Of a stretch of 27,916 bases of DNA, positions 6,917 to 27,916 are shown one piece after another. The stretch is from a virus. The DNA lies in IMG/VR virus record IMGVR_UViG_3300005860_000005, positions 1 to 27,916 of that record. One strand, given 5' to 3'. Both the position numbers and the translations under genes were made by a program. Under the pieces are notes generated by a model. The model had not been told where the DNA came from, searched no databases, and saw nothing but the letters and a program-made list of their open reading frames with translations. The first letter of the stretch is position 1, and each line of letters begins with the position of its first letter.

Positions 6917-7645
6917 CTAAATTCCTGCTCTACGCAGGAAATCTTTAACTGCCTCCAGTTTAATCGCAAACCCTATACCCTCGGCCGGGGACATTATCTT
7001 GCTTACGGCAACACCTACCAATTCTCCCTTTGTATTGATCACGGGCCCGCCACTGTTACCAGGGTTTATCGGGGCGTCCAGCTGGAACACGTCTCCCCTC
7101 TCTATACTACTGACTATCCCCGCCGTAACACTCTCGATAAATCCAAAAGGAGAACCTATAACGGCTACAGGGTCCCCTTTTACAACTGGAGTATCGGCAA
7201 GTTTCAGGGGCTCTGGCAGGTAGTCAGATGTTTTGATTAAAGCAAGATCATAGACGGAATCCACGATGACCAGTTCACCCTTGAAATTAGGCATGTTCTC
7301 CTTGATAAGGGTGAAATCCTTAACCACGGTCCCGTCTTCACTTTGGACCACGTGCCTATTTGTTAAAATGTACCCTACTCCATCTTTAACCTTGATATAG
7401 CTCCCGCTTCCCAGAGCATCCCCTCTATGAACACACACAACATCAGGTATCACGAAGGGCATAAGGTAGGCAAAATAGTTCATATGCAGAAGCAACCTGT
7501 CGGCTAGGCTAGCGGCCTCTTCCCTTGTAAGAGGGGCTTCCGGCTTGAAAGTACCGTCGGGATACCCGCTCATAACACCGGCTTTAAACACCCTGTCTAT
7601 ACTTCCGGCGCTCCACCTAGTAGGCTCGACGTCCACAAACGGCAT
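6917..7645 (-). CDS. SLH-domain, HtrA-like serine protease
   Basis: 242 residues from ATG 7645, which has GGAGG seven bases before it; a GTG four bases into the upstream stop is an alternative. Residues about 1-50 are one SLH motif (GVMSGYPDGTF...LTREEAASLADRL) that would bind secondary cell-wall polymer. The rest is a trypsin-fold HtrA/DegP-like domain without PDZ: catalytic His in ILTNRHVV (about 98), Asp in VYDLALIK (about 133) and Ser in NPGNSGGPV (about 198). No signal peptide is seen, so export may depend on virion assembly or lysis. It likely acts at the S-layer or envelope. Confidence 0.85.
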   Translation of the reverse strand: MPFVDVEPTRWSAGSIDRVFKAGVMSGYPDGTFKPEAPLTREEAASLADRLLLHMNYFAYLMPFVIPDVVCVHRGDALGSGSYIKVKDGVGYILTNRHVVQSEDGTVVKDFTLIKENMPNFKGELVIVDSVYDLALIKTSDYLPEPLKLADTPVVKGDPVAVIGSPFGFIESVTAGIVSSIERGDVFQLDAPINPGNSGGPVINTKGELVGVAVSKIMSPAEGIGFAIKLEAVKDFLRRAGI

Positions 7646-7647
7646 AG

Positions 7648-7818
7648 TCACACCTCCTCGAATATCTTCTTAAACTTATTGTCAAACCTGTTAAGCCTCT
7701 CATAAGCCTCTAACATATCCAGGTAAGCCATCATATACTCGTAAAATTCTTTGAATAACTTAGCAGCCTCCTCTCTAGTGATAGGCCTACGCATATCCAA
7801 GTTCCCCCACCGTTCCAT
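7648..7818 (-). CDS. Half-SLH mini-protein
   Basis: 56 residues, starting MERWGNLD and ending KKIFEEV. The segment RRPITREEAAKLFKEF matches the second half of an SLH motif (compare LTREEAASLADRL in the gene downstream), with the GYPDGTF half missing. The rest is a charged, probably coiled helix. The stop TGA overlaps a potential GTG start of the serine protease, and GAGGAGG at its 3' end serves that gene. It may be a remnant of an SLH gene or a small adaptor that pairs with SLH domains. Confidence 0.6.
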   Translation of the reverse strand: MERWGNLDMRRPITREEAAKLFKEFYEYMMAYLDMLEAYERLNRFDNKFKKIFEEV

Positions 7819-7832
7819 ACCTAACCCCCCTC

Positions 7833-8771
7833 CTAACTTCCAACAAGTTTATCTGCCGCCTCATTAAAGGCCATAGCCATTGTCTTCCTCATCTCCCTGC
7901 TCCACAACCTCCACATTCTAGCCAGCGCCGAAGCAACCTCCTCCCGTGTAGCCGGCTGGGTTGGCCTGAACGTACCATCGGGATACCCTACCATAATCCC
8001 CAACTCCTTAAGCAGTTCTATATCTTCCTTAGCAGGCCTGTCATCATAGTCGCTACCATAGAACATCCTGCTTACCTCCTTTATAGCCCTTAGCTGATTA
8101 TCATTGGCGTGCTGCCAGGACCACCACGATATGCCCGAGCAGCCATCCTCACGGACTATTCTAGCAAATTTGACCATATCTTCATAGCTCACCTCATCGT
8201 ATGCCTGGCCCACGGGAACAACCGACTTCCCTAAACTAGCATATCCCGCCTTGGTAAGCCTCCAGGCTTCCTCTACCGGAATACCCATAGTAAACCAGTA
8301 GACCTGGGGCATGGCTACATCGCAGTATTCGGCAAAGACCTCCCAGGGGAAGCTCCTATGGTAGTCGATAATAGCGAAAGAAGTAAAGCCCAAAGGTACA
8401 TCAGGAGCCTGCTCCCTCACAATCTCCAAAAACGTCCTGGCCGCTATATCAGATCCTCCCTTCTCAAACTCCGATTCGGCATCCACTATATACCAGTCCG
8501 CTCCCTGGCGTATAGACTCCAAAGCCATATATGCTTCACCTTGAGGGTAGTTACCGTACACATACCCCCATGCCGCCACCTTAAACCCGTTCCTCTTGAA
8601 TATAGGTGAATACCTTGCGAACTGGCTCCACAACCTAGTACCATCATGAGACTTAATTATCATCCCCGTTATGCCCAGATCCTTAGCCACTGCTATCATG
8701 GCATCGGGGTTGCCGTTCAGTATCGATTCTGCCGTCCATATCCAAAGCCAGTTGCCATCCCATACGGCCAT
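7833..8771 (-). CDS. Glycoside-hydrolase-like TIM-barrel protein with C-terminal SLH motif
   Basis: 312 residues. The first 235 look like a TIM-barrel glycosidase related to GH25-type cell-wall lysozymes: strand-end motifs GMIIKSHDG, FKVAAWGYVYG, WYIVDAES (D97, E99 as candidate acid pair), CDVAMPQVYW, and SGISWWSWQH. Residues about 246-290 form one SLH motif (LGIMVGYPDGTFRPTQPATREEVASAL) that would anchor it to the cell wall. AGAGGAGGTGTCTTAG precedes the ATG. It probably cleaves peptidoglycan or wall glycans as an endolysin-like enzyme. The exact GH family is uncertain. Confidence 0.7.
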   Translation of the reverse strand: MAVWDGNWLWIWTAESILNGNPDAMIAVAKDLGITGMIIKSHDGTRLWSQFARYSPIFKRNGFKVAAWGYVYGNYPQGEAYMALESIRQGADWYIVDAESEFEKGGSDIAARTFLEIVREQAPDVPLGFTSFAIIDYHRSFPWEVFAEYCDVAMPQVYWFTMGIPVEEAWRLTKAGYASLGKSVVPVGQAYDEVSYEDMVKFARIVREDGCSGISWWSWQHANDNQLRAIKEVSRMFYGSDYDDRPAKEDIELLKELGIMVGYPDGTFRPTQPATREEVASALARMWRLWSREMRKTMAMAFNEAADKLVGS

Positions 8772-8784
8772 CTAAGACACCTCC

Positions 8785-9010
8785 TCTTTGGAATACGCCA
8801 CATTCACACCTTATCTGGCAAAGTAGTCCACCGCGTCATACTACCATCCGTTGTGGCATAATGAACTACCCGAATATCACCGCAGATCGGACATCGCCAT
8901 TTTACAAGTCGTACACAACCTACTCCATCGCATATCCATTGCTCTATCTCCCAAATGCACTCAAACATATTAAGCCTTTGCCCCCTCCAATTTTTCTTTG
9001 GAATACGCCA
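8785..9010. repeat. 16-bp direct repeat flanking a zinc-ribbon gene
   Basis: TCTTTGGAATACGCCA occurs at 8785-8800 and exactly again at 8995-9010, 210 bp apart. The left copy lies between two genes; the right copy encodes the end of the cytosine methyltransferase. Together they bracket the small gene at 8804-8968, as if that cassette had been inserted or duplicated by recombination. Confidence 0.8.
8804..8968 (-). CDS. Small zinc-ribbon-like protein
   Basis: 54 residues, starting MFECIWEIEQ. Cysteines C4, C13, C18 and the knuckle WRCPICGD (about 28-31) suggest a small zinc-binding fold. GGAGGGGGC upstream gives a ribosome site, and the ATG begins one base after the methyltransferase stop, so it is in the same operon. 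It lies between the two 16-bp repeats. DNA- or protein-binding is possible; function unknown. Confidence 0.55.
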   Translation of the reverse strand: MFECIWEIEQWICDGVGCVRLVKWRCPICGDIRVVHYATTDGSMTRWTTLPDKV

Positions 9011-9680
9011 TAATAGCTCTCCCTATAACCTCTGCCACCTGCGGCACTACAGCGTTACCTAGTGCCCTAATTCTGTCCACGTAATGGGGAACCCCATTAC
9101 GCTTTCGTACAACTGCGGACTCGGATAGCAGGGTGTCCCGTGTAATTCTCTCAATAGGCGTGGCAGGGATGATTTCTGACAGCCTGCACCCTTCCAGTCC
9201 CGTGCCTGGGGGGTGGGCAAAGATAAAGATCCGCTCTCGAAGGTGGGCAGCTCCCACGGCCCTAGCCGGAAACACAAACCATTCCGCATCATACCCCATT
9301 TCGGCCAGATCCCCGAGAACTTCGCCCATCCCCCAAACAAGGAGACCCGGAACGTTCTCCACGAGGACGTAGCGCGGTCGTACCACGCGAACGATACGGG
9401 CAAATTCGGGCCATAGCCAGCGCTCGTCTGCCGTTCCTTTTTTCTTTCCTGCCACCGATACTGGCTGGCAGGGAAAACCACCTGCGATGAGGTCAACTGG
9501 TTCAAGCTCATCACCCCTGACCTGCCGTATATCTCCATACTTCGGTACATTAGGCCAATGTTTTTCTAAAATCAGTCGGCAGAATGGGTCTATTTCTACC
9601 TGCCATGCTATTTCCATTCCTGCCCATTCCAGTCCCAAATCTAATCCTCCAATACCGCTAAATAGGCTTCCAACCCGCAT
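8970..9680 (-). CDS. C5-cytosine DNA methyltransferase (compact)
   Basis: 236 residues from ATG 9680 (GAGAGGAG before it); an ATG at 9695 is possible. All core motifs are present: I (LFSGIGGLDLG), IV with catalytic Cys (GFPCQPVS), VI (VENVPGLL), VIII (HLRERIF) and X (GNAVVPQV). It transfers a methyl group from S-adenosylmethionine to C5 of cytosine. The target-recognition region between VIII and X is only about 45 residues, so specificity is probably short. It follows the adenine methyltransferase and UDG genes in one operon, suggesting genome protection from restriction. A second long open frame overlaps it on the same strand. Confidence 0.9.
   Translation of the reverse strand: MRVGSLFSGIGGLDLGLEWAGMEIAWQVEIDPFCRLILEKHWPNVPKYGDIRQVRGDELEPVDLIAGGFPCQPVSVAGKKKGTADERWLWPEFARIVRVVRPRYVLVENVPGLLVWGMGEVLGDLAEMGYDAEWFVFPARAVGAAHLRERIFIFAHPPGTGLEGCRLSEIIPATPIERITRDTLLSESAVVRKRNGVPHYVDRIRALGNAVVPQVAEVIGRAIMAYSKEKLEGAKA
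9059..9550 (-). other. Long overlapping reading frame inside the cytosine methyltransferase gene
   Basis: A 163-codon frame, shifted by one base relative to the methyltransferase, contains SSWRTFRVSLFGGW, GMMRNGLCFRL, SLPTPQARDWKG and VMGFPITWTELG. I recall such WPRSG-MRNG...PTP...MGFPxGWT strings from proteins annotated in phages next to or as cytosine methyltransferases. They may reflect a conserved overlapping frame or simply the constraint of the enzyme motifs. No separate ribosome site was identified. Expression is unproven. Confidence 0.3.
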
Positions 9681-9712
9681 TTCTCCTCTCCCCATTGCAC
9701 TTAATAAACATT

Positions 9713-13348: not shown

Positions 13349-13725
13349 GTCATTCCCTCCCAGTATCCTAGCTCTTCAATCTCTACCTCGGCCCGTTCGA
13401 ACTTCCTCCCATCGGCCGAGTATATGCCCGTACCCTCACCATAGCGTACTATTTGCTTATCGTTGGGTATAACTCCAGCGTACTGTAGACCATCCTCAAT
13501 CGCTTTTACAAGGTTACTAAGGTCACCGTGATTTTTCCCGTAGACGTAGAACCTGACCGTAAGGATGACCGGACCCTCTATCCTGGGTATCTTGGCAAAC
13601 TTCGCCCACCAGGCTACGGTCTCCTGGTACTCTAAGCTCTTCCGGGCCCTTTCCGTCCACTTGCTGCGCCTGGTCATCCTCTGGGCCGGGACCGGGCGGC
13701 CAGGGATAATTAAGCTGTACTTCAA
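13345..13725 (-). CDS. rusA: RusA-like Holliday junction resolvase
   Basis: 126 residues, the usual RusA size. The family signature is visible: HGDLSNLVKAIEDGL (D68, N71, K74, D78), then GVIPNDKQI (D89), the acidic cluster that binds two metal ions, and a basic N-terminus (RMTRRSKWTERARKS). It cuts four-way junctions made in recombination or replication. Its ATG overlaps the stop of the sigma-like gene (ATGA), so their products are coupled in amount. Confidence 0.9.
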   Translation of the reverse strand: MKYSLIIPGRPVPAQRMTRRSKWTERARKSLEYQETVAWWAKFAKIPRIEGPVILTVRFYVYGKNHGDLSNLVKAIEDGLQYAGVIPNDKQIVRYGEGTGIYSADGRKFERAEVEIEELGYWEGMT

Positions 13726-14429
13726 GGCTGACCATCCCCCACACCTGTTTGTGTATGTGGTATCTCATATCCCCAGAACGCAAGCTTCTCCACTACTTCC
13801 TCTAAGCACTTCCTACCGAAACCCTTTATAGACATAAGCTGTTCCTCCGACATACCGAGCAACTGGCCTACCGTATCGATACCAGCTTTCCGTAGAGCAT
13901 TATAAGCCCTAACACTGAGGTTAAGAGTATCTATCCCTGCATCAACTGGTACACCACTACCGTCATTTCCCGGCAGGGGTAAGCCATGAGAAACAATGTA
14001 GTTCTCCAGTACACCTACCTTATGCCGTAGTCTTTCTATGGTCCTAATAAGAACTTTTATCTCGGTATTAAGCCTATCTATCTCCATTTCCAGCACTGTC
14101 ATAGTTCTATTCAACTGGGTATCCCACTTCCTGCGATTAGATAAGTGAGACATCCGCCTCATAGCTTTGGCCTCTATCTGCCTTATACGCTCACGGGATA
14201 ATCCCAGCTCACTAGCCGTCTCACTTAAAGTCATACCTTTTACCTGCCTCATATACAGCACTTCTATAGACCTCTTTGATAGCCCGGCCCTGTCCGCATC
14301 TGTTTCCTCGTCGATATTCTTGTACCTGTCAGTAATGTAGTCCAAAAGCTTTAGCGGGCAAATTCCTTTGTACTTCTTGTTAAACTCATGGCAATACTTG
14401 TACACATCAATGATGGCAAGAGTCTTCAT
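13722..14429 (-). CDS. Sigma-70 region 4 fused to RNA polymerase alpha C-terminal-like domain
   Basis: 235 residues from ATG 14429, which overlaps the preceding stop as TGATG. Residues about 50-95 are a sigma region 4 helix-turn-helix (MTLSETASELGLSRERIRQI, the classic -35-recognising pattern). Residues 108-148 are a coiled coil. Residues 165-222 match the alpha-subunit C-terminal domain (IDTLNLSVRAYNALRKAGI, TVGQLLGMSEEQL, IKGFGRKCLEEV), which binds UP-element DNA and regulators. No sigma region 2 is seen, so it is probably a regulator or sigma-like appropriator rather than a complete sigma factor. It likely redirects host polymerase. Confidence 0.85.
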   Translation of the reverse strand: MKTLAIIDVYKYCHEFNKKYKGICPLKLLDYITDRYKNIDEETDADRAGLSKRSIEVLYMRQVKGMTLSETASELGLSRERIRQIEAKAMRRMSHLSNRRKWDTQLNRTMTVLEMEIDRLNTEIKVLIRTIERLRHKVGVLENYIVSHGLPLPGNDGSGVPVDAGIDTLNLSVRAYNALRKAGIDTVGQLLGMSEEQLMSIKGFGRKCLEEVVEKLAFWGYEIPHTQTGVGDGQP

Positions 14430-14872
14430 CACTCTACCACCCTCACTTTTACTGTTCTGCGCCCCCATCTTAGAGCGCTTTCTCGGTCCGGAAGGTACAG
14501 GTCCGCACGGTACCCTTTTATTGCTCCCCCCGTATCCAGGGCCACCACGTAGCCCACGCCCGGGATCCAGACGATAGACCCCAGGGGGATGATCTCGGGA
14601 TCCACAGCCAGAACTCCTTTATCCACAGGCAGCCCCGTGAAGGTCATCCCCCGCCCGTCCATGCCGGGGTCGTTGGCGGTATAGGCGGTAATCTCTAGAG
14701 TAAGCTCCCTGAACTTGAGATGCCGACTTGCCAGTTCGTACCTCCTGACTTCTACCTTTTTGACGGGAGGATCTGGCTGCCAGATAATTACCGCCTCTTC
14801 ATATGCTACGGGCACATCTACAATTAGAGCAAATATAGTGGCGATAAAGAGCATTGCTACTAGTCTAGCCAT
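14429..14872 (-). CDS. Membrane-anchored 3D-domain cell-wall protein
   Basis: 147 residues from ATG 14872 (GAGGG at good spacing); ATG 14896 is an alternative. A hydrophobic N-terminal helix (about 3-22) is a signal or anchor. The C-terminal part is a 3D domain (the YabE/YuiC-type double-psi barrel related to MltA): EITAYTANDPG, GVLAVDPEIIPLGS, VALDTGGAIKGYRADLYL. The three conserved aspartates give the name. In Firmicutes these domains act on peptidoglycan. It may help virus release or remodel the wall. Confidence 0.85.
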   Translation of the reverse strand: MARLVAMLFIATIFALIVDVPVAYEEAVIIWQPDPPVKKVEVRRYELASRHLKFRELTLEITAYTANDPGMDGRGMTFTGLPVDKGVLAVDPEIIPLGSIVWIPGVGYVVALDTGGAIKGYRADLYLPDRESALRWGRRTVKVRVVE

Positions 14873-15094: not shown

Positions 15095-16044
15095 CAAACC
15101 GCTCTCCCTATTGGGTACTCTCTCACCCCCTGGCCCACTCTAATCTACTAGCACTCTCTAGCATAGTGGTTCGCTCAACCTTCATGGTGGACTCTCCCTA
15201 GATGGCTAACTCTGTTCTCGTTATACCCTCATACCACCTGGCACCCTTTCATGCTGTGGATCACTCTTAGACCCTGGTACTCTACAGCTTCCTAGCTGCT
15301 TCATTAGGTATTTCGCTCCGACAGCTTGGCATACTCTTGAGTGTTGGCCCACTCTGTTGCCCTGGTACCCTCTTGCCTTTTGGCTCACTCAATTGCTTTG
15401 GTGCTTTCCAATATTTTGATTCACTTCTATCCGTTGGTTCTCTCCCACACTGTGGTTCGTTCACGCTCAATGGTACCCTTTTGTTACATGGCCACTTCAA
15501 CCCAATGGTACTCTTCCCCTCTAAGGCCCACTCAAGAGCCATGGTACTCTCAAGATACGTGGTTCACTCTAACTTAAGAGTACTCTCCGGACCAATGGTT
15601 CACTCCAGGCCTCTGGCACTCTCTCGATTCGTGGTTCAATCCTCATTCATAACACACTCCCATTCCGAGGTTCACTCCCTGAACTTGGCACTCTCTTTTT
15701 TCGTGGTTCGCCCAATTCTCGTGGTACCCTCTATACAAATGGCCCGCTCACCTTTACTGGCACTCTTTTGCCACTTGGCTTACTCGCATACCATAGATAC
15801 CTCATAAACCCTGGCTCACTCTCCTATAAAGGCACTCTCTACCGTACTGGCTCCGCTCATATCCAGTGGTACTCTACGGCAGGTCGGCCCACTTTGGGAT
15901 GGTGGTACCCTTATGGTTCTTAGCTCGCTCAGCACACTTGGTACTCTCACTCGCTGTGGCCCACTATAGCCTAATATTACCCTCCCTCTTAGGCTCGTTC
16001 AACCTCCGTGGTACTCTCCCCACTCTTGACTTACTTGGCTACTT
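15095..16044 (-). repeat. TIGR-type array: about 53 half-units of 18 bp, 36-bp super-period
   Basis: Plus-strand reading: 10-bp cores followed by 8-nt unique spacers, repeated about 53 times. Core A is TGGYACYCTC, core B is TGGYYCRCTC, and they alternate, giving a 36-bp period (for example A at 15542, 15578, 15614; B at 15560, 15596, 15632). Reverse-complement cores are GAGRGTRCCA and GAGYGRRCCA. No two spacers seen are the same. Variation in cores is mostly transitions. Length departures are few: 16-nt units at 15293 and 15975, 17-nt at 15489, 19-nt at 15848. An A/B phase slip lies at about 15221-15326. Flush against the tas-like gene, it matches TIGR arrays processed to 36-nt dual-spacer tigRNAs. 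The strand is inferred from the neighbours. Confidence 0.9.
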
Positions 16045-16066
16045 TAGAAGGTTTTCTATGTATGGC

Positions 16067-17092
16067 CTAGACTAAGCCTATCACCTCCAGATTGGGTACC
16101 GGAATTATATCTACATGGCCTAAATGTTCTATTACATAAGGTTTGGGAGGTTCCTTGCCGTAATGTAGCCTGTAAGCAACATAATGATAGTGGCTCAAAA
16201 AAATCTTAACTGCGTACCTCTTAGCTCGGGCATGGATATGTCCGGGAGGTAACACCCCTTGCTTGTAATACTGGTAGGCTACAGTATCTTTGTCTATTTC
16301 TTTAGTACGTAGAATATTCGCTGCCTGTTCAGCATACTCTCCTTTTTCGTTTTTCTCTATCTCATATTGCTTGCGCGCTTCGTAAATCTTCCCGTAGATA
16401 TCATCCGGGTGGTTCTTTACTTTGACAAAGCTTTCCCCTATCTTCCAGCAGAGTACTTTAAGCCGATGGTTCCAGGGACGTTTAGCCAAAGCCGAAATTA
16501 GGTTCTGCGCTGTCCTGGGCTTAAGCTTACCGTCTTTACCCCTAGGCCAAAGAGATAATATACTTTCAACCTTACGCCCAGCAAGCATGGCTATAACAGC
16601 TATATCAGCATTTGATACCTCACCAGTCCTTCTCCCTAAAGCCTCTGTAACCAGTTTCTTTGCCTCTTCCTTCCCATACCACTTTGTGGTTGGATCCAGT
16701 CCCGCATATCTCCAAATATGTCCAACAGTAGGGGCCTTGGTTATATCAATATGGGCTAGAAGACCCGATGCAATCACTGGACCGATACCCCGGATGCTTT
16801 TTGCCCACCTGCCAAGTGGCTGCCTCTCACTCCATTCATCCAGAACTGCTTTAATTCGTTTCTCTAAACCATACTGCTGCTCGAATATCCAGCCTACCAG
16901 CATATTAGGCTCCCCTAACTCGTTAAGAGCACGAGACTGATTACCGGCTTGACAACGGTAGTCTTGTATCTGGTAGTATATATCTACAAGATATCGTACT
17001 TCTCTAGGCTGAAGCCCTATAACAGCCATCTTTAAGTCTTTGCTCAACCTTGCTAACGGTTCTAGACTGAGTTCTTCTTCCAGAACGGCCAT
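16067..17092 (-). CDS. tasA: TIGR-associated (Tas) protein, nuclease-less TasA-like, Nop/IS110-like core
   Basis: 341 residues; CCAAGGGGGAGGG precedes the ATG. The helix-hairpin-helix IRGIGPVIASGLLAHI (100-115) and IWRYAGLDP (126-134) match the Transposase_20/IS110 C-terminal core, which is related to the Nop domain of box C/D snoRNPs. RPWNHRLKVLCWKIGESFVK (205-224) and a conserved C-terminal block (LPPGHIHARAKRYAVKIF) continue that family. The N-terminal 90 residues are helical and do not show the IS110 DEDD site, and no HNH or RuvC motif is visible. That composition fits TasA, the DNA-binding form. The stop codon is about 5 bp past the array's decayed end units, so gene and array form one locus. 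Without a nuclease, it may bind targets and block them, or recruit others. Confidence 0.8.
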   Translation of the reverse strand: MAVLEEELSLEPLARLSKDLKMAVIGLQPREVRYLVDIYYQIQDYRCQAGNQSRALNELGEPNMLVGWIFEQQYGLEKRIKAVLDEWSERQPLGRWAKSIRGIGPVIASGLLAHIDITKAPTVGHIWRYAGLDPTTKWYGKEEAKKLVTEALGRRTGEVSNADIAVIAMLAGRKVESILSLWPRGKDGKLKPRTAQNLISALAKRPWNHRLKVLCWKIGESFVKVKNHPDDIYGKIYEARKQYEIEKNEKGEYAEQAANILRTKEIDKDTVAYQYYKQGVLPPGHIHARAKRYAVKIFLSHYHYVAYRLHYGKEPPKPYVIEHLGHVDIIPVPNLEVIGLV

Positions 17093-17135
17093 ATAAACCC
17101 TCCCCCTTGGTAATTAATTCTTGTGAGTTTTTTTC

Positions 17136-17169
17136 GCCCCTCTCCTGATAAATCTACTAGGAGAGGGGC
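17136..17169. other. Perfect hairpin in the leader of the tas gene
   Basis: An 11-bp perfect stem GCCCCTCTCCT / AGGAGAGGGGC with a 12-nt loop lies in the 155-bp gap upstream of tas. A T7 run is on the 5' side of the plus strand, so on the tas transcript it reads as A after the stem. It is not a classic terminator for either strand, and may be a leader structure or binding site. Confidence 0.7.
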
Positions 17170-21975: not shown

Positions 21976-22040
21976 TTCACCCCCTTTTCACTGGCAGAAT
22001 AGGAATACTTTTGGCAATAGGGACATTTTTTCTCAAACAT
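21903..22040 (-). CDS. Zinc-ribbon mini-protein
   Basis: 45 residues starting MFEKKCPYCQKY, with CPYC and CPHC knuckles. GGAGGTATCACC precedes the ATG. It overlaps the lone integrase-domain gene by 8 bp upstream and the membrane protein downstream. Likely one of the window's many zinc-ribbon small proteins. Confidence 0.6.
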   Translation of the reverse strand: MFEKKCPYCQKYSYSASEKGVKWICPHCKRDISHVPADIPKPLKS

Positions 22041-22371
22041 GGTGATACCTCCTTATTTTTTCTTCCTTTATGGCTAGGCGCCGGGTGAGCACAGGATTAC
22101 CCGACACTATACCCTCTTCTACTAAGAAATCGTAAAATCCTTTCAGGCAGTAGATGTGCATGTTCACGGTGTGGTGAGCGAGATCCTGTTTTAGAAGGTA
22201 GTTATGGAAGAGCTTAATATCCTTTATACTAAGTTTAGTGAAGTCGATACCGTTGGCGTTACACCACTCTTTGAACTTGAGCAGGTGGGATGTGTAGCTC
22301 TTTATGGTGGCCTCGGAGCTGCCTTGGGCCCGCATGTCGGCAATGTACTCCCTGATGAGTTTATCGAGCAT
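22033..22371 (-). CDS. Stand-alone tyrosine-recombinase N-terminal (SAM-like) domain
   Basis: 112 residues from ATG 22371. It matches the core-binding domain of XerC/D-type integrases: EYIADMRAQGSSEATIKSYTSHLLKFKEWC, IKLFHNYLL, HHTVNMHIYCLKGFYDFLVEEGIVSGNPV, ending in a basic tail. The catalytic domain (R-K-H-R-Y) is missing. It could be a truncated recombinase or a DNA-binding partner of the full integrase at the right edge. A promoter lies upstream (22434-22462). Confidence 0.75.
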   Translation of the reverse strand: MLDKLIREYIADMRAQGSSEATIKSYTSHLLKFKEWCNANGIDFTKLSIKDIKLFHNYLLKQDLAHHTVNMHIYCLKGFYDFLVEEGIVSGNPVLTRRLAIKEEKIRRYHHV

Positions 22372-22433
22372 AGCCATCCCTCTGCGGAAGGATTTTTGTA
22401 CTCTCTCATATCGGGGTCTTGTTTCTACCCTTA

Positions 22434-27164: not shown

Positions 27165-27916
27165 ATGAGTTATCCCATTATGCCTTACCCAAAACCTACT
27201 AAAAAGGAAATTGATCCCATTTTCGAGTGGATGTTGAGCATTGGGGAAGTCCGTAAGAACACTCTCGACGCCTATGGTACTGCCGTTTTTGCCCGGGCTG
27301 CACCCTTCATCAGGGGTCAAGACCCCAGGACATTAGGACCTGCCGAGGCTGAGCTGGTGGTCCAGGCGTTACGGCGCCGTTACTCCCCGGCCACTGTCAA
27401 CCAGACCGTCTCTGCCCTCTCCTCCCTGTGGAAACACCTCATGAAAAGAGGCATAGTAAAGGAAAATCCCTGGGAACACGTCTCCCGGGAGATACCTGAG
27501 AACAGGGTTGCTGAAAGATATTTGACCCGAGAGGAGGTAAAAAGGCTTGTCCTAGCCGCTCCCTCCCTCCGGGACAGGGCCCTTCTGCTTTTCCTCTACG
27601 CCACCGGGGCCCGGGTATCTGAGGTGGTAAGGCCCAAAAACACCCCGTCCAACTCCCCCAGGGGCCTAAGGTGGAAGAATATCCGCTTCGAGGCCAACGG
27701 CTGGGCCTATGCCACCCTCTACGGTAAAGGCGGTAAGACCCGGACGGTGGGGGTAAGGCCGGAGGTCGCCGCCCTACTCAAGAAGATGTGCCCTAACCCC
27801 CGGCCCGAGGACCCGGTGTTTCCCATTACCCGTGTCGAAGCATTCCTTCTGGTCCGCAAGTGCGCTGCCCGGGCGGGAATAAAAAAGCCAGTGTCTCCGC
27901 ACTGGCTACGACACTC
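27165..27916 (+). CDS. Tyrosine recombinase/integrase (3' end outside window)
   Basis: 250 residues visible from ATG 27165 (GGAGAGAAGGGAA). N-terminal SAM-like domain (about 15-105; RKNTLDAYGTAVFARAA, SPATVNQTVSALSSLWKHLM), catalytic domain with Arg150 (TGARVSEVV), Lys188 (GKGGKTRTV) and H246-W-L-R249-H. The Tyr nucleophile would lie just beyond the window. XerC/D- or phage-type integrase; it cuts and joins DNA for integration or dimer resolution. It is divergent from the right operon. The lone N-terminal domain at 22033 belongs to the same superfamily. Confidence 0.9.
   Translation, partial: MSYPIMPYPKPTKKEIDPIFEWMLSIGEVRKNTLDAYGTAVFARAAPFIRGQDPRTLGPAEAELVVQALRRRYSPATVNQTVSALSSLWKHLMKRGIVKENPWEHVSREIPENRVAERYLTREEVKRLVLAAPSLRDRALLLFLYATGARVSEVVRPKNTPSNSPRGLRWKNIRFEANGWAYATLYGKGGKTRTVGVRPEVAALLKKMCPNPRPEDPVFPITRVEAFLLVRKCAARAGIKKPVSPHWLRH

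What the first reader, a model, noticed from the sequence alone, without database searches (positions are those of the whole stretch)
15095..17092. TIGR-Tas system: 36-bp dual-spacer array beside a TasA-like protein
Seen: about 53 half-units of a 10-bp core plus 8 unique bases, cores alternating A/B for a strict 36-bp period, ending about 5 bp from the stop of a gene with an IS110/Nop-like helix-hairpin-helix and no visible nuclease. Known: TIGR-Tas systems (described in 2025) have arrays processed into 36-nt RNAs with two spacers, and a Nop-domain Tas protein related to IS110 transposases and box C/D snoRNPs; they occur in phages. Inferred: this is such a locus, with about 26 tigRNAs, one of the larger intact-looking examples, in a probable thermophile virus.
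Basis: partly seen in the sequence, partly recalled or inferred. Interest (0 to 1): 0.95.

Follow-up and report, generated by a model that had tools for sequence, protein, structure and literature searches.

The report
Phage TIGR-TasA guide-RNA array
A phage genome carries a worn but recognisable member of the RNA-guided TIGR-Tas systems described in 2025: a guide-binding protein without a nuclease, next to about 25 two-part RNA guides whose DNA targets remain unknown.

Summary
On the minus strand, 16072-15100, two 10-nt repeats alternate with 8-nt spacers: GAGUGAGCCA (edge) and GAGAGUACCA (loop), period 36, about 25 units. The chain scores 211 against 9.6 +/- 1.4 in shuffled sequence and is on one strand only. 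The array abuts a 341-aa gene.

That protein passes NCBI's TIGR-Tas model (196 bits, cut-off 100). Its confident AlphaFold model matches solved TasH (Z 19) and TasR (Z 17.6) better than IS621 (13.5) or Nop5 (7.1), and starts after their nuclease domains: nuclease-less TasA.

Eighty viral relatives were fetched; 65 of them, plus the window, carry such arrays. Across 58 arrays the two inner pairs of the edge repeat covary, as reported for TIGR edge repeats. So this is a new member of a known kind.

No spacer pair matched the phage itself, related phages or TIGR-bearing contigs above chance. Side result: sister arrays are mosaics of whole guide units joined mostly at edge repeats, which bears on how TIGR arrays change.

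The parts
16067..17092 (-). tas gene, 341 aa, TasA type (Nop-type RNA-binding core, no nuclease domain)
   Evidence: NCBIfam NF052498 196 bits vs cut-off 100; phmmer 9mty TasR 2.4e-16, TasH 2.9e-9; AF2 pLDDT 93.1, pTM 0.88; VIA Z 19.3 TasH, 17.6 TasR
15100..16072 (-). TIGR dual-repeat array, about 25 complete 36-nt units (edge-spacer A-loop-spacer B)
   Evidence: chain score 211 vs shuffled max 12.9
15131..16036 (-). edge repeats, consensus GAGUGAGCCA (G A N Y G A R N' C A with pairs 3-8 and 4-7), alternating every 36 nt
   Evidence: family covariation of both pairs
15113..16018 (-). loop repeats, consensus GAGAGUACCA, alternating every 36 nt
15100..15104 (-). truncated 5' half of an edge repeat (GAGCG) closing the array, as described for TIGR arrays
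   Evidence: sequence read; Faure et al. text
16469..16693 (-). tas codons 134-208, holding an extra ~66-residue helical insertion found in 13 of 78 aligned family members; fold not matched to anything known
15230..15318 (-). half-unit slip: edge/loop order is interrupted beside degenerate cores and a 6-nt spacer

Best explanation
This is a phage-borne TIGR-TasA system. The tas gene and the array behind it are read as one minus-strand transcript within the phage's replication and recombination gene block (inferred from orientation and the abutting ends). As shown for other Tas proteins by Faure et al. 2025, the transcript would be cut inside each edge repeat by an unidentified host RNase, in a Tas-dependent way, giving 36-nt tigRNAs: half edge, 8-nt spacer A, loop repeat, 8-nt spacer B, half edge. 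A TasA dimer would hold one tigRNA through the GA and CA boxes of edge and loop repeats. Spacer A would pair with one strand and spacer B with the other strand of a 16-bp DNA site, which the complex opens and bends. Lacking a nuclease, it most likely blocks or bends the target (interference with transcription, replication or maintenance of a competing element) rather than cutting it. The cores have drifted but their box positions are still held more tightly than the middle, so I infer the system is old and at least partly functional. Shown here: membership, anatomy, absence of a nuclease domain, covariation, no self-target. Inferred: transcription, processing, DNA binding, outcome.
For: NCBIfam TIGR-Tas model at 7.7e-58. 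TasR and TasH are the nearest solved sequences with one protein and with a 45-sequence profile, 6.2e-27 and 3.1e-15 against 5.7e-6 for IS621. The model aligns from TasH residue ~64 and TasR residue ~111, i.e. after the nuclease domains. Array anatomy and significance. 80 viral relatives were fetched; 65 of them plus the window have a detectable array, and several bacterial genomes have the same layout. Edge pair 3-8 forms a standard pair in 57 of 58 arrays with G-C, A-U and U-A types (0 of 5000 permutations reach this); pair 4-7 in 58 of 58. In the window, box positions differ from consensus in 15% and 13% of cells, middle positions in 33% and 32% (Fisher p 8e-4 and 4e-4). Published mechanism.
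Against: Only 4 of 25 units have all three flanking repeats with perfect boxes and 8-nt spacers, and the two edge pairs do not covary inside this array, so part or all of the array may be decaying. No target was found. No terminator was seen after the array. No RNA data exist.
Confidence: 0.88

Rival explanations
1. The array is a decaying remnant: the phage once used a TIGR-TasA system but the repeats have lost selection and few or no working tigRNAs are made.
For: Repeat identity 0.78/0.80 is among the lowest of 76 arrays; 31 of 51 repeats have intact boxes and 4 of 25 units are fully intact; transitions outnumber transversions 74 to 34; half-unit slips.
Against: The tas ORF is intact; spacing is kept at 8 nt for 49 of 53 spacers while substitutions are frequent; box positions are about half as variable as middle positions. 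Other arrays (L071, L024, L050, L037) are similarly loose, so looseness may be tolerated.
Confidence: 0.25
2. An IS110-family transposon whose RNA or ends produce the repeats; the gene is a transposase that uses bridge-RNA recombination.
For: Pfam Transposase_20 hit, PHROG name 'transposase', shared fold with IS621.
Against: NCBIfam IS110 model scores 30 bits against a cut-off of 140, TIGR-Tas 196 against 100; no N-terminal DEDD domain; one copy in the record; guide arrays beside most relatives.
Confidence: 0.02
3. A regulatory array that directs TasA to the phage's own genome (transcription or packaging control) instead of foreign DNA.
For: TasA lacks a nuclease and sits in the replication block.
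Against: Best own-genome matches of true spacer pairs are no better than mispaired controls, in the window and across the family.
Confidence: 0.08
4. A degenerate CRISPR array or a simple minisatellite.
For: Periodic repeats with unique spacers beside a protein gene.
Against: Two alternating 10-nt repeats and 8-nt spacers; no cas genes seen; spacers unrelated to each other; the layout recurs beside homologous tas genes in many other viruses.
Confidence: 0.01

Closest known systems
TIGR-TasA with dual-repeat array (Faure et al. 2025, PMC12045711; e.g. Flavonifractor plautii FpTIGR)
   Same: Solo Nop-type protein, adjacent array of two alternating ~10-nt repeats, 36-nt unit, found in phages; edge repeat with covarying inner pair; truncated edge at the array end
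   Different: 8-nt instead of 9-nt spacers, box motifs GA...CA rather than the UG...CCA given for TasR, an extra ~66-aa insertion, a longer and far more degenerate array, no ParB-like partner found
SpTasH of Salicola phage CGphi29 (TasH structures PDB 21kl, 9vzx, 9w02-04)
   Same: Best structural match (Z 19.3); SpTIGR also has 16 nt of spacer per guide by the paper's account
   Different: Has an N-terminal HNH nuclease; only ~22% identity
TaTasR (PDB 9mty)
   Same: Z 17.6, 30% identity over 194 aligned residues; same coiled-coil and C-terminal domain order
   Different: Has an active RuvC domain; 9-nt spacers
IS110 transposases IS621/ISCro4
   Same: Shared Nop-like RNA-binding core (Z 13.5 and 12.9)
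   Different: DEDD transposase domain and bridge RNA; the window protein has no DEDD domain
Box C/D snoRNP protein Nop5
   Same: Distant fold match (1nt2, Z 7.1)
   Different: Binds fibrillarin and guides RNA methylation

Membership tests
TIGR-Tas system (dual-repeat type) | Tas protein with Nop-type RNA-binding domain, closer to TasR/TasH than to IS110 | tested here: met
   NF052498 196 bits vs cut-off 100; profile search and structure ranks
TIGR-Tas system (dual-repeat type) | Adjacent array of two alternating 8-12-nt repeats with short spacers | tested here: met
   10-nt edge and loop repeats, 8-nt spacers, 36-nt period
TIGR-Tas system (dual-repeat type) | Edge repeat with box pair plus an extra covarying pair | tested here: met
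   Pairs 3-8 and 4-7 covary across 58 related arrays; not seen inside the window array alone
TIGR-Tas system (dual-repeat type) | Repeats conserved within a locus | tested here: inconclusive
   Identity only 78-80%; 4 of 25 units fully intact
TIGR-Tas system (dual-repeat type) | Processing to 36-nt tigRNAs bound by Tas | not testable with these tools
   Needs small-RNA sequencing or pull-down
TIGR-Tas system (dual-repeat type) | Tandem-spacer DNA targeting | tested here: inconclusive
   No target above chance in own genome, related phages or 1.24 Mb of family loci
TasA subtype | No HNH or RuvC nuclease domain | tested here: met
   Model aligns only from TasH residue ~64 and TasR residue ~111 onward; Pfam finds no nuclease above cut-off, HNH_3 0.026 is below its cut-off
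IS110 transposase | N-terminal DEDD domain and match to the IS110 model | tested here: not met
   NF033542 30 bits vs cut-off 140; no N-terminal domain in ORF or model
CRISPR-Cas | Single repeat of 25-36 nt with long spacers and cas genes | tested here: not met
   Two 10-nt repeats with 8-nt spacers; no cas family named among the proteins scanned
TasA-TasParB operon variant | ParB-like gene in operon with tasA | tested here: not met
   No ParB_N match in the record; neighbours without ParB hits

The most novel reading that the evidence does not exclude
TIGR arrays evolve by exchanging whole guide units at edge repeats, without leader-end growth, and TasA tolerates strongly degenerate repeats. 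A drifted array such as this one would then still supply many DNA-binding guides that block rather than cut rival elements, with the extra helical insertion adding a DNA or RNA contact.
Probability: 0.3. Interest if true: 0.55.

Novelty: new member of a known kind. Interest (0 to 1): 0.4.

Why it matters
TIGR-Tas is a recent RNA-guided system whose natural targets, array growth and the role of nuclease-less TasA are open questions according to its discoverers. This locus adds a phage example with a long, drifting array. Together with its relatives, it gives a comparative set in which unit exchange, repeat decay and edge-repeat covariation can be measured.

Tried and rejected
Target search: exact 16-nt matches of 1057 unique spacer pairs, in the orientation A + reverse-complement B with gaps 0-2, against 1.24 Mb of family loci gave 6 hits (4 at gap 0, from two units, one of them low-complexity) against 0-2 for mispaired pairs in the same orientation, but other orientations and mispairings gave 0-8, so I do not claim enrichment. 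Own-genome search: no better than mispaired. Two related phage records in full: no better than controls. One spacer pair shared by four sister arrays was scanned through IMG/VR: 5 hits with no common gene, one in a gene also present near other tas loci, judged chance. The insertion in Tas does not go with loose repeats (Mann-Whitney p 0.19). The insertion has no fold match (best Foldseek E 0.3; best Z 5.3, within background); a missing match does not make the fold new. Rfam: no hit. No tblastn match to the protein in 50,697 named phage records. PADLOC does not know the protein. A second scan for relatives of a window structural protein found none. Host identification failed: relatives cannot be drawn for a virus record.

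Full report
WHAT IS THERE. The window is a whole IMG/VR virus record of 27,916 bases. Between 16072 and 15100 on the minus strand lie 54 ten-base cores separated mostly by 8-nt spacers. The autocorrelation has sharp peaks at 18, 36, 54 and 72 and is limited to this stretch. Scored with rules taken from other loci, the minus strand gives a chain of 51 repeats with score 211. The plus strand gives 11.2 and 60 shuffled windows give 9.6 +/- 1.4. The cores alternate between GAGUGAGCCA and GAGAGUACCA. Exceptions are four spacers of 6, 6, 7 and 9 nt and a half-unit slip near 15318-15230. The array ends in GAGCG (15104-15100), a half edge repeat, just before the ribosome-binding site of a small zinc-ribbon-like gene (read). 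At its other end it runs into the stop codon of the 341-aa gene 16067-17092.

THE PROTEIN. NCBIfam's TIGR-Tas model matches at 7.7e-58, 196 bits against a cut-off of 100, while the IS110 model reaches 30 bits against 140. The closest solved proteins are TasR (9mty) and TasH (21kl), by single sequence and by a 45-member profile. The AlphaFold2 model is confident (pLDDT 93.1, pTM 0.88). It aligns to TasH at Z 19.3, TasR 17.6, IS621 13.5, ISCro4 12.9 and Nop5 7.1. The alignment starts only after the HNH and RuvC domains of TasH and TasR, so this is TasA. A helical insertion of about 66 residues (codons 139-204) is present in 13 of 78 aligned family members and gave no clear fold match.

THE FAMILY. 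A scan of viral contigs returned 80 relatives. Of these, 65, plus the window, have a detectable dual-repeat array, giving 76 arrays and 1355 units. The genome collection adds 17 more, including Halomonas sp. NO4 and Acidobacteriaceae bacterium KBS 96, with the same layout in most. One repeat reads G A N Y G A R N' C A in nearly all arrays. Across 58 arrays position 3 pairs with 8 in 57 cases (G-C 38, A-U 12, U-A 6, U-G 1) and 4 pairs with 7 in all 58 (C-G 38, U-A 18, U-G 2); no permutation of 5000 reaches this. This is the extra covarying pair that Faure et al. describe for edge repeats. The other repeat, 8-10 nt long, is then the loop repeat. The arrays share ancestry, so these counts are not independent events, but the same pair types recur in different lineages.

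STATE OF THIS ARRAY. Repeat identity is 0.78 and 0.80, against 0.9-1.0 in many relatives. By a strict rule only 4 of 25 units are flawless, while the median array has 54%; a few well-kept arrays also score low there because their box letters differ. Within the window the edge pairs do not covary. Still, box positions carry 15% and 13% differences and middle positions 33% and 32% (p 8e-4 and 4e-4), and spacing is well kept. I read this as an old array under weakened but not absent constraint; a remnant is the main rival. It is not among the largest: L066, L071 and L024 have 46, 51 and 56 units.

TARGETS. From the published cut positions I derived the target order as spacer A followed by the reverse complement of spacer B (inference). 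No search gave a convincing signal above mispaired controls: 1.24 Mb of family loci, the phage itself, two related phage records, one conserved unit through IMG/VR. The phage's own genome is therefore an unlikely target. Foreign targets stay open because the host is unknown.

ARRAY CHANGE (side result). Sister phages with roughly 84-96% identical flanks carry mosaic arrays: runs of shared units with unrelated units between them, inside the array and not only at one end. In four separate pairs 29 of 35 block ends fall at edge repeats and 6 at loop repeats (binomial p 6e-5). So the whole tigRNA unit is the usual module of exchange, which agrees with the edge/loop assignment, and re-pairing of spacer halves does occur.

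MECHANISM. Transcription with tas, processing to 36-nt tigRNAs, dimer binding and two-strand pairing are carried over from Faure et al. and were not tested here. Without a nuclease the likely outcome is blocking or bending DNA; the authors themselves list this as a possibility, with help to phage integrases as another.

VERDICT. A new member of a known kind.

Noticed in passing
window 9059-9550 (-) inside 8970-9695 (-): Two different reading frames of the same DNA both match phage DNA methyltransferase families: the outer frame PHROG 363 (1e-81), the nested 163-aa frame PHROG 1008 (7.6e-26). Possibly an overlapping gene pair or a family built from such overlaps.
   Followed up: partly
L058/L060/L062/L066, L072/L073/L075/L076, L061/L063: TIGR arrays of sister phages are mosaics of shared and unrelated units, with internal changes and junctions mostly at edge repeats (29 of 35 in four pairs); spacers also carry point substitutions.
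   Followed up: partly
window 13722-14468 (-): A protein joining a sigma-70 region 4 domain (2e-15) to an RNA polymerase alpha C-terminal domain (3e-22).
   Followed up: no
window 6917-7651 (-) and 7833-8771 (-): Phage proteins with an S-layer homology domain fused to a trypsin-like protease, and one with an S-layer homology domain near the C-terminal end of a glycosidase-looking protein, hinting at a host with an S-layer.
   Followed up: no
window 17134-17168: A GC-rich hairpin (GCCCCTCTCCT ... AGGAGAGGGGC) in the gap upstream of tas, next to a run of T on the plus strand; read from sequence, not a scored terminator.
   Followed up: no
L024 (7454-13277): Three separate TIGR arrays of 9, 18 and 56 units around one tas match; a simple ORF pick did not recover one clean tas frame there, so the gene may be broken or mis-assembled.
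   Followed up: no
window 22033-22377 (-) and 27167-27916 (+): An integrase N-terminal domain alone as an ORF, and what looks, from the sequence only, like an integrase running off the right end, preceded by about 190 bases of purine-rich low-complexity DNA.
   Followed up: no
931 unique 8-nt spacer pairs of the family: The first spacer base after the CA box is A or U in about 62-64% of cases in both spacers.
   Followed up: no
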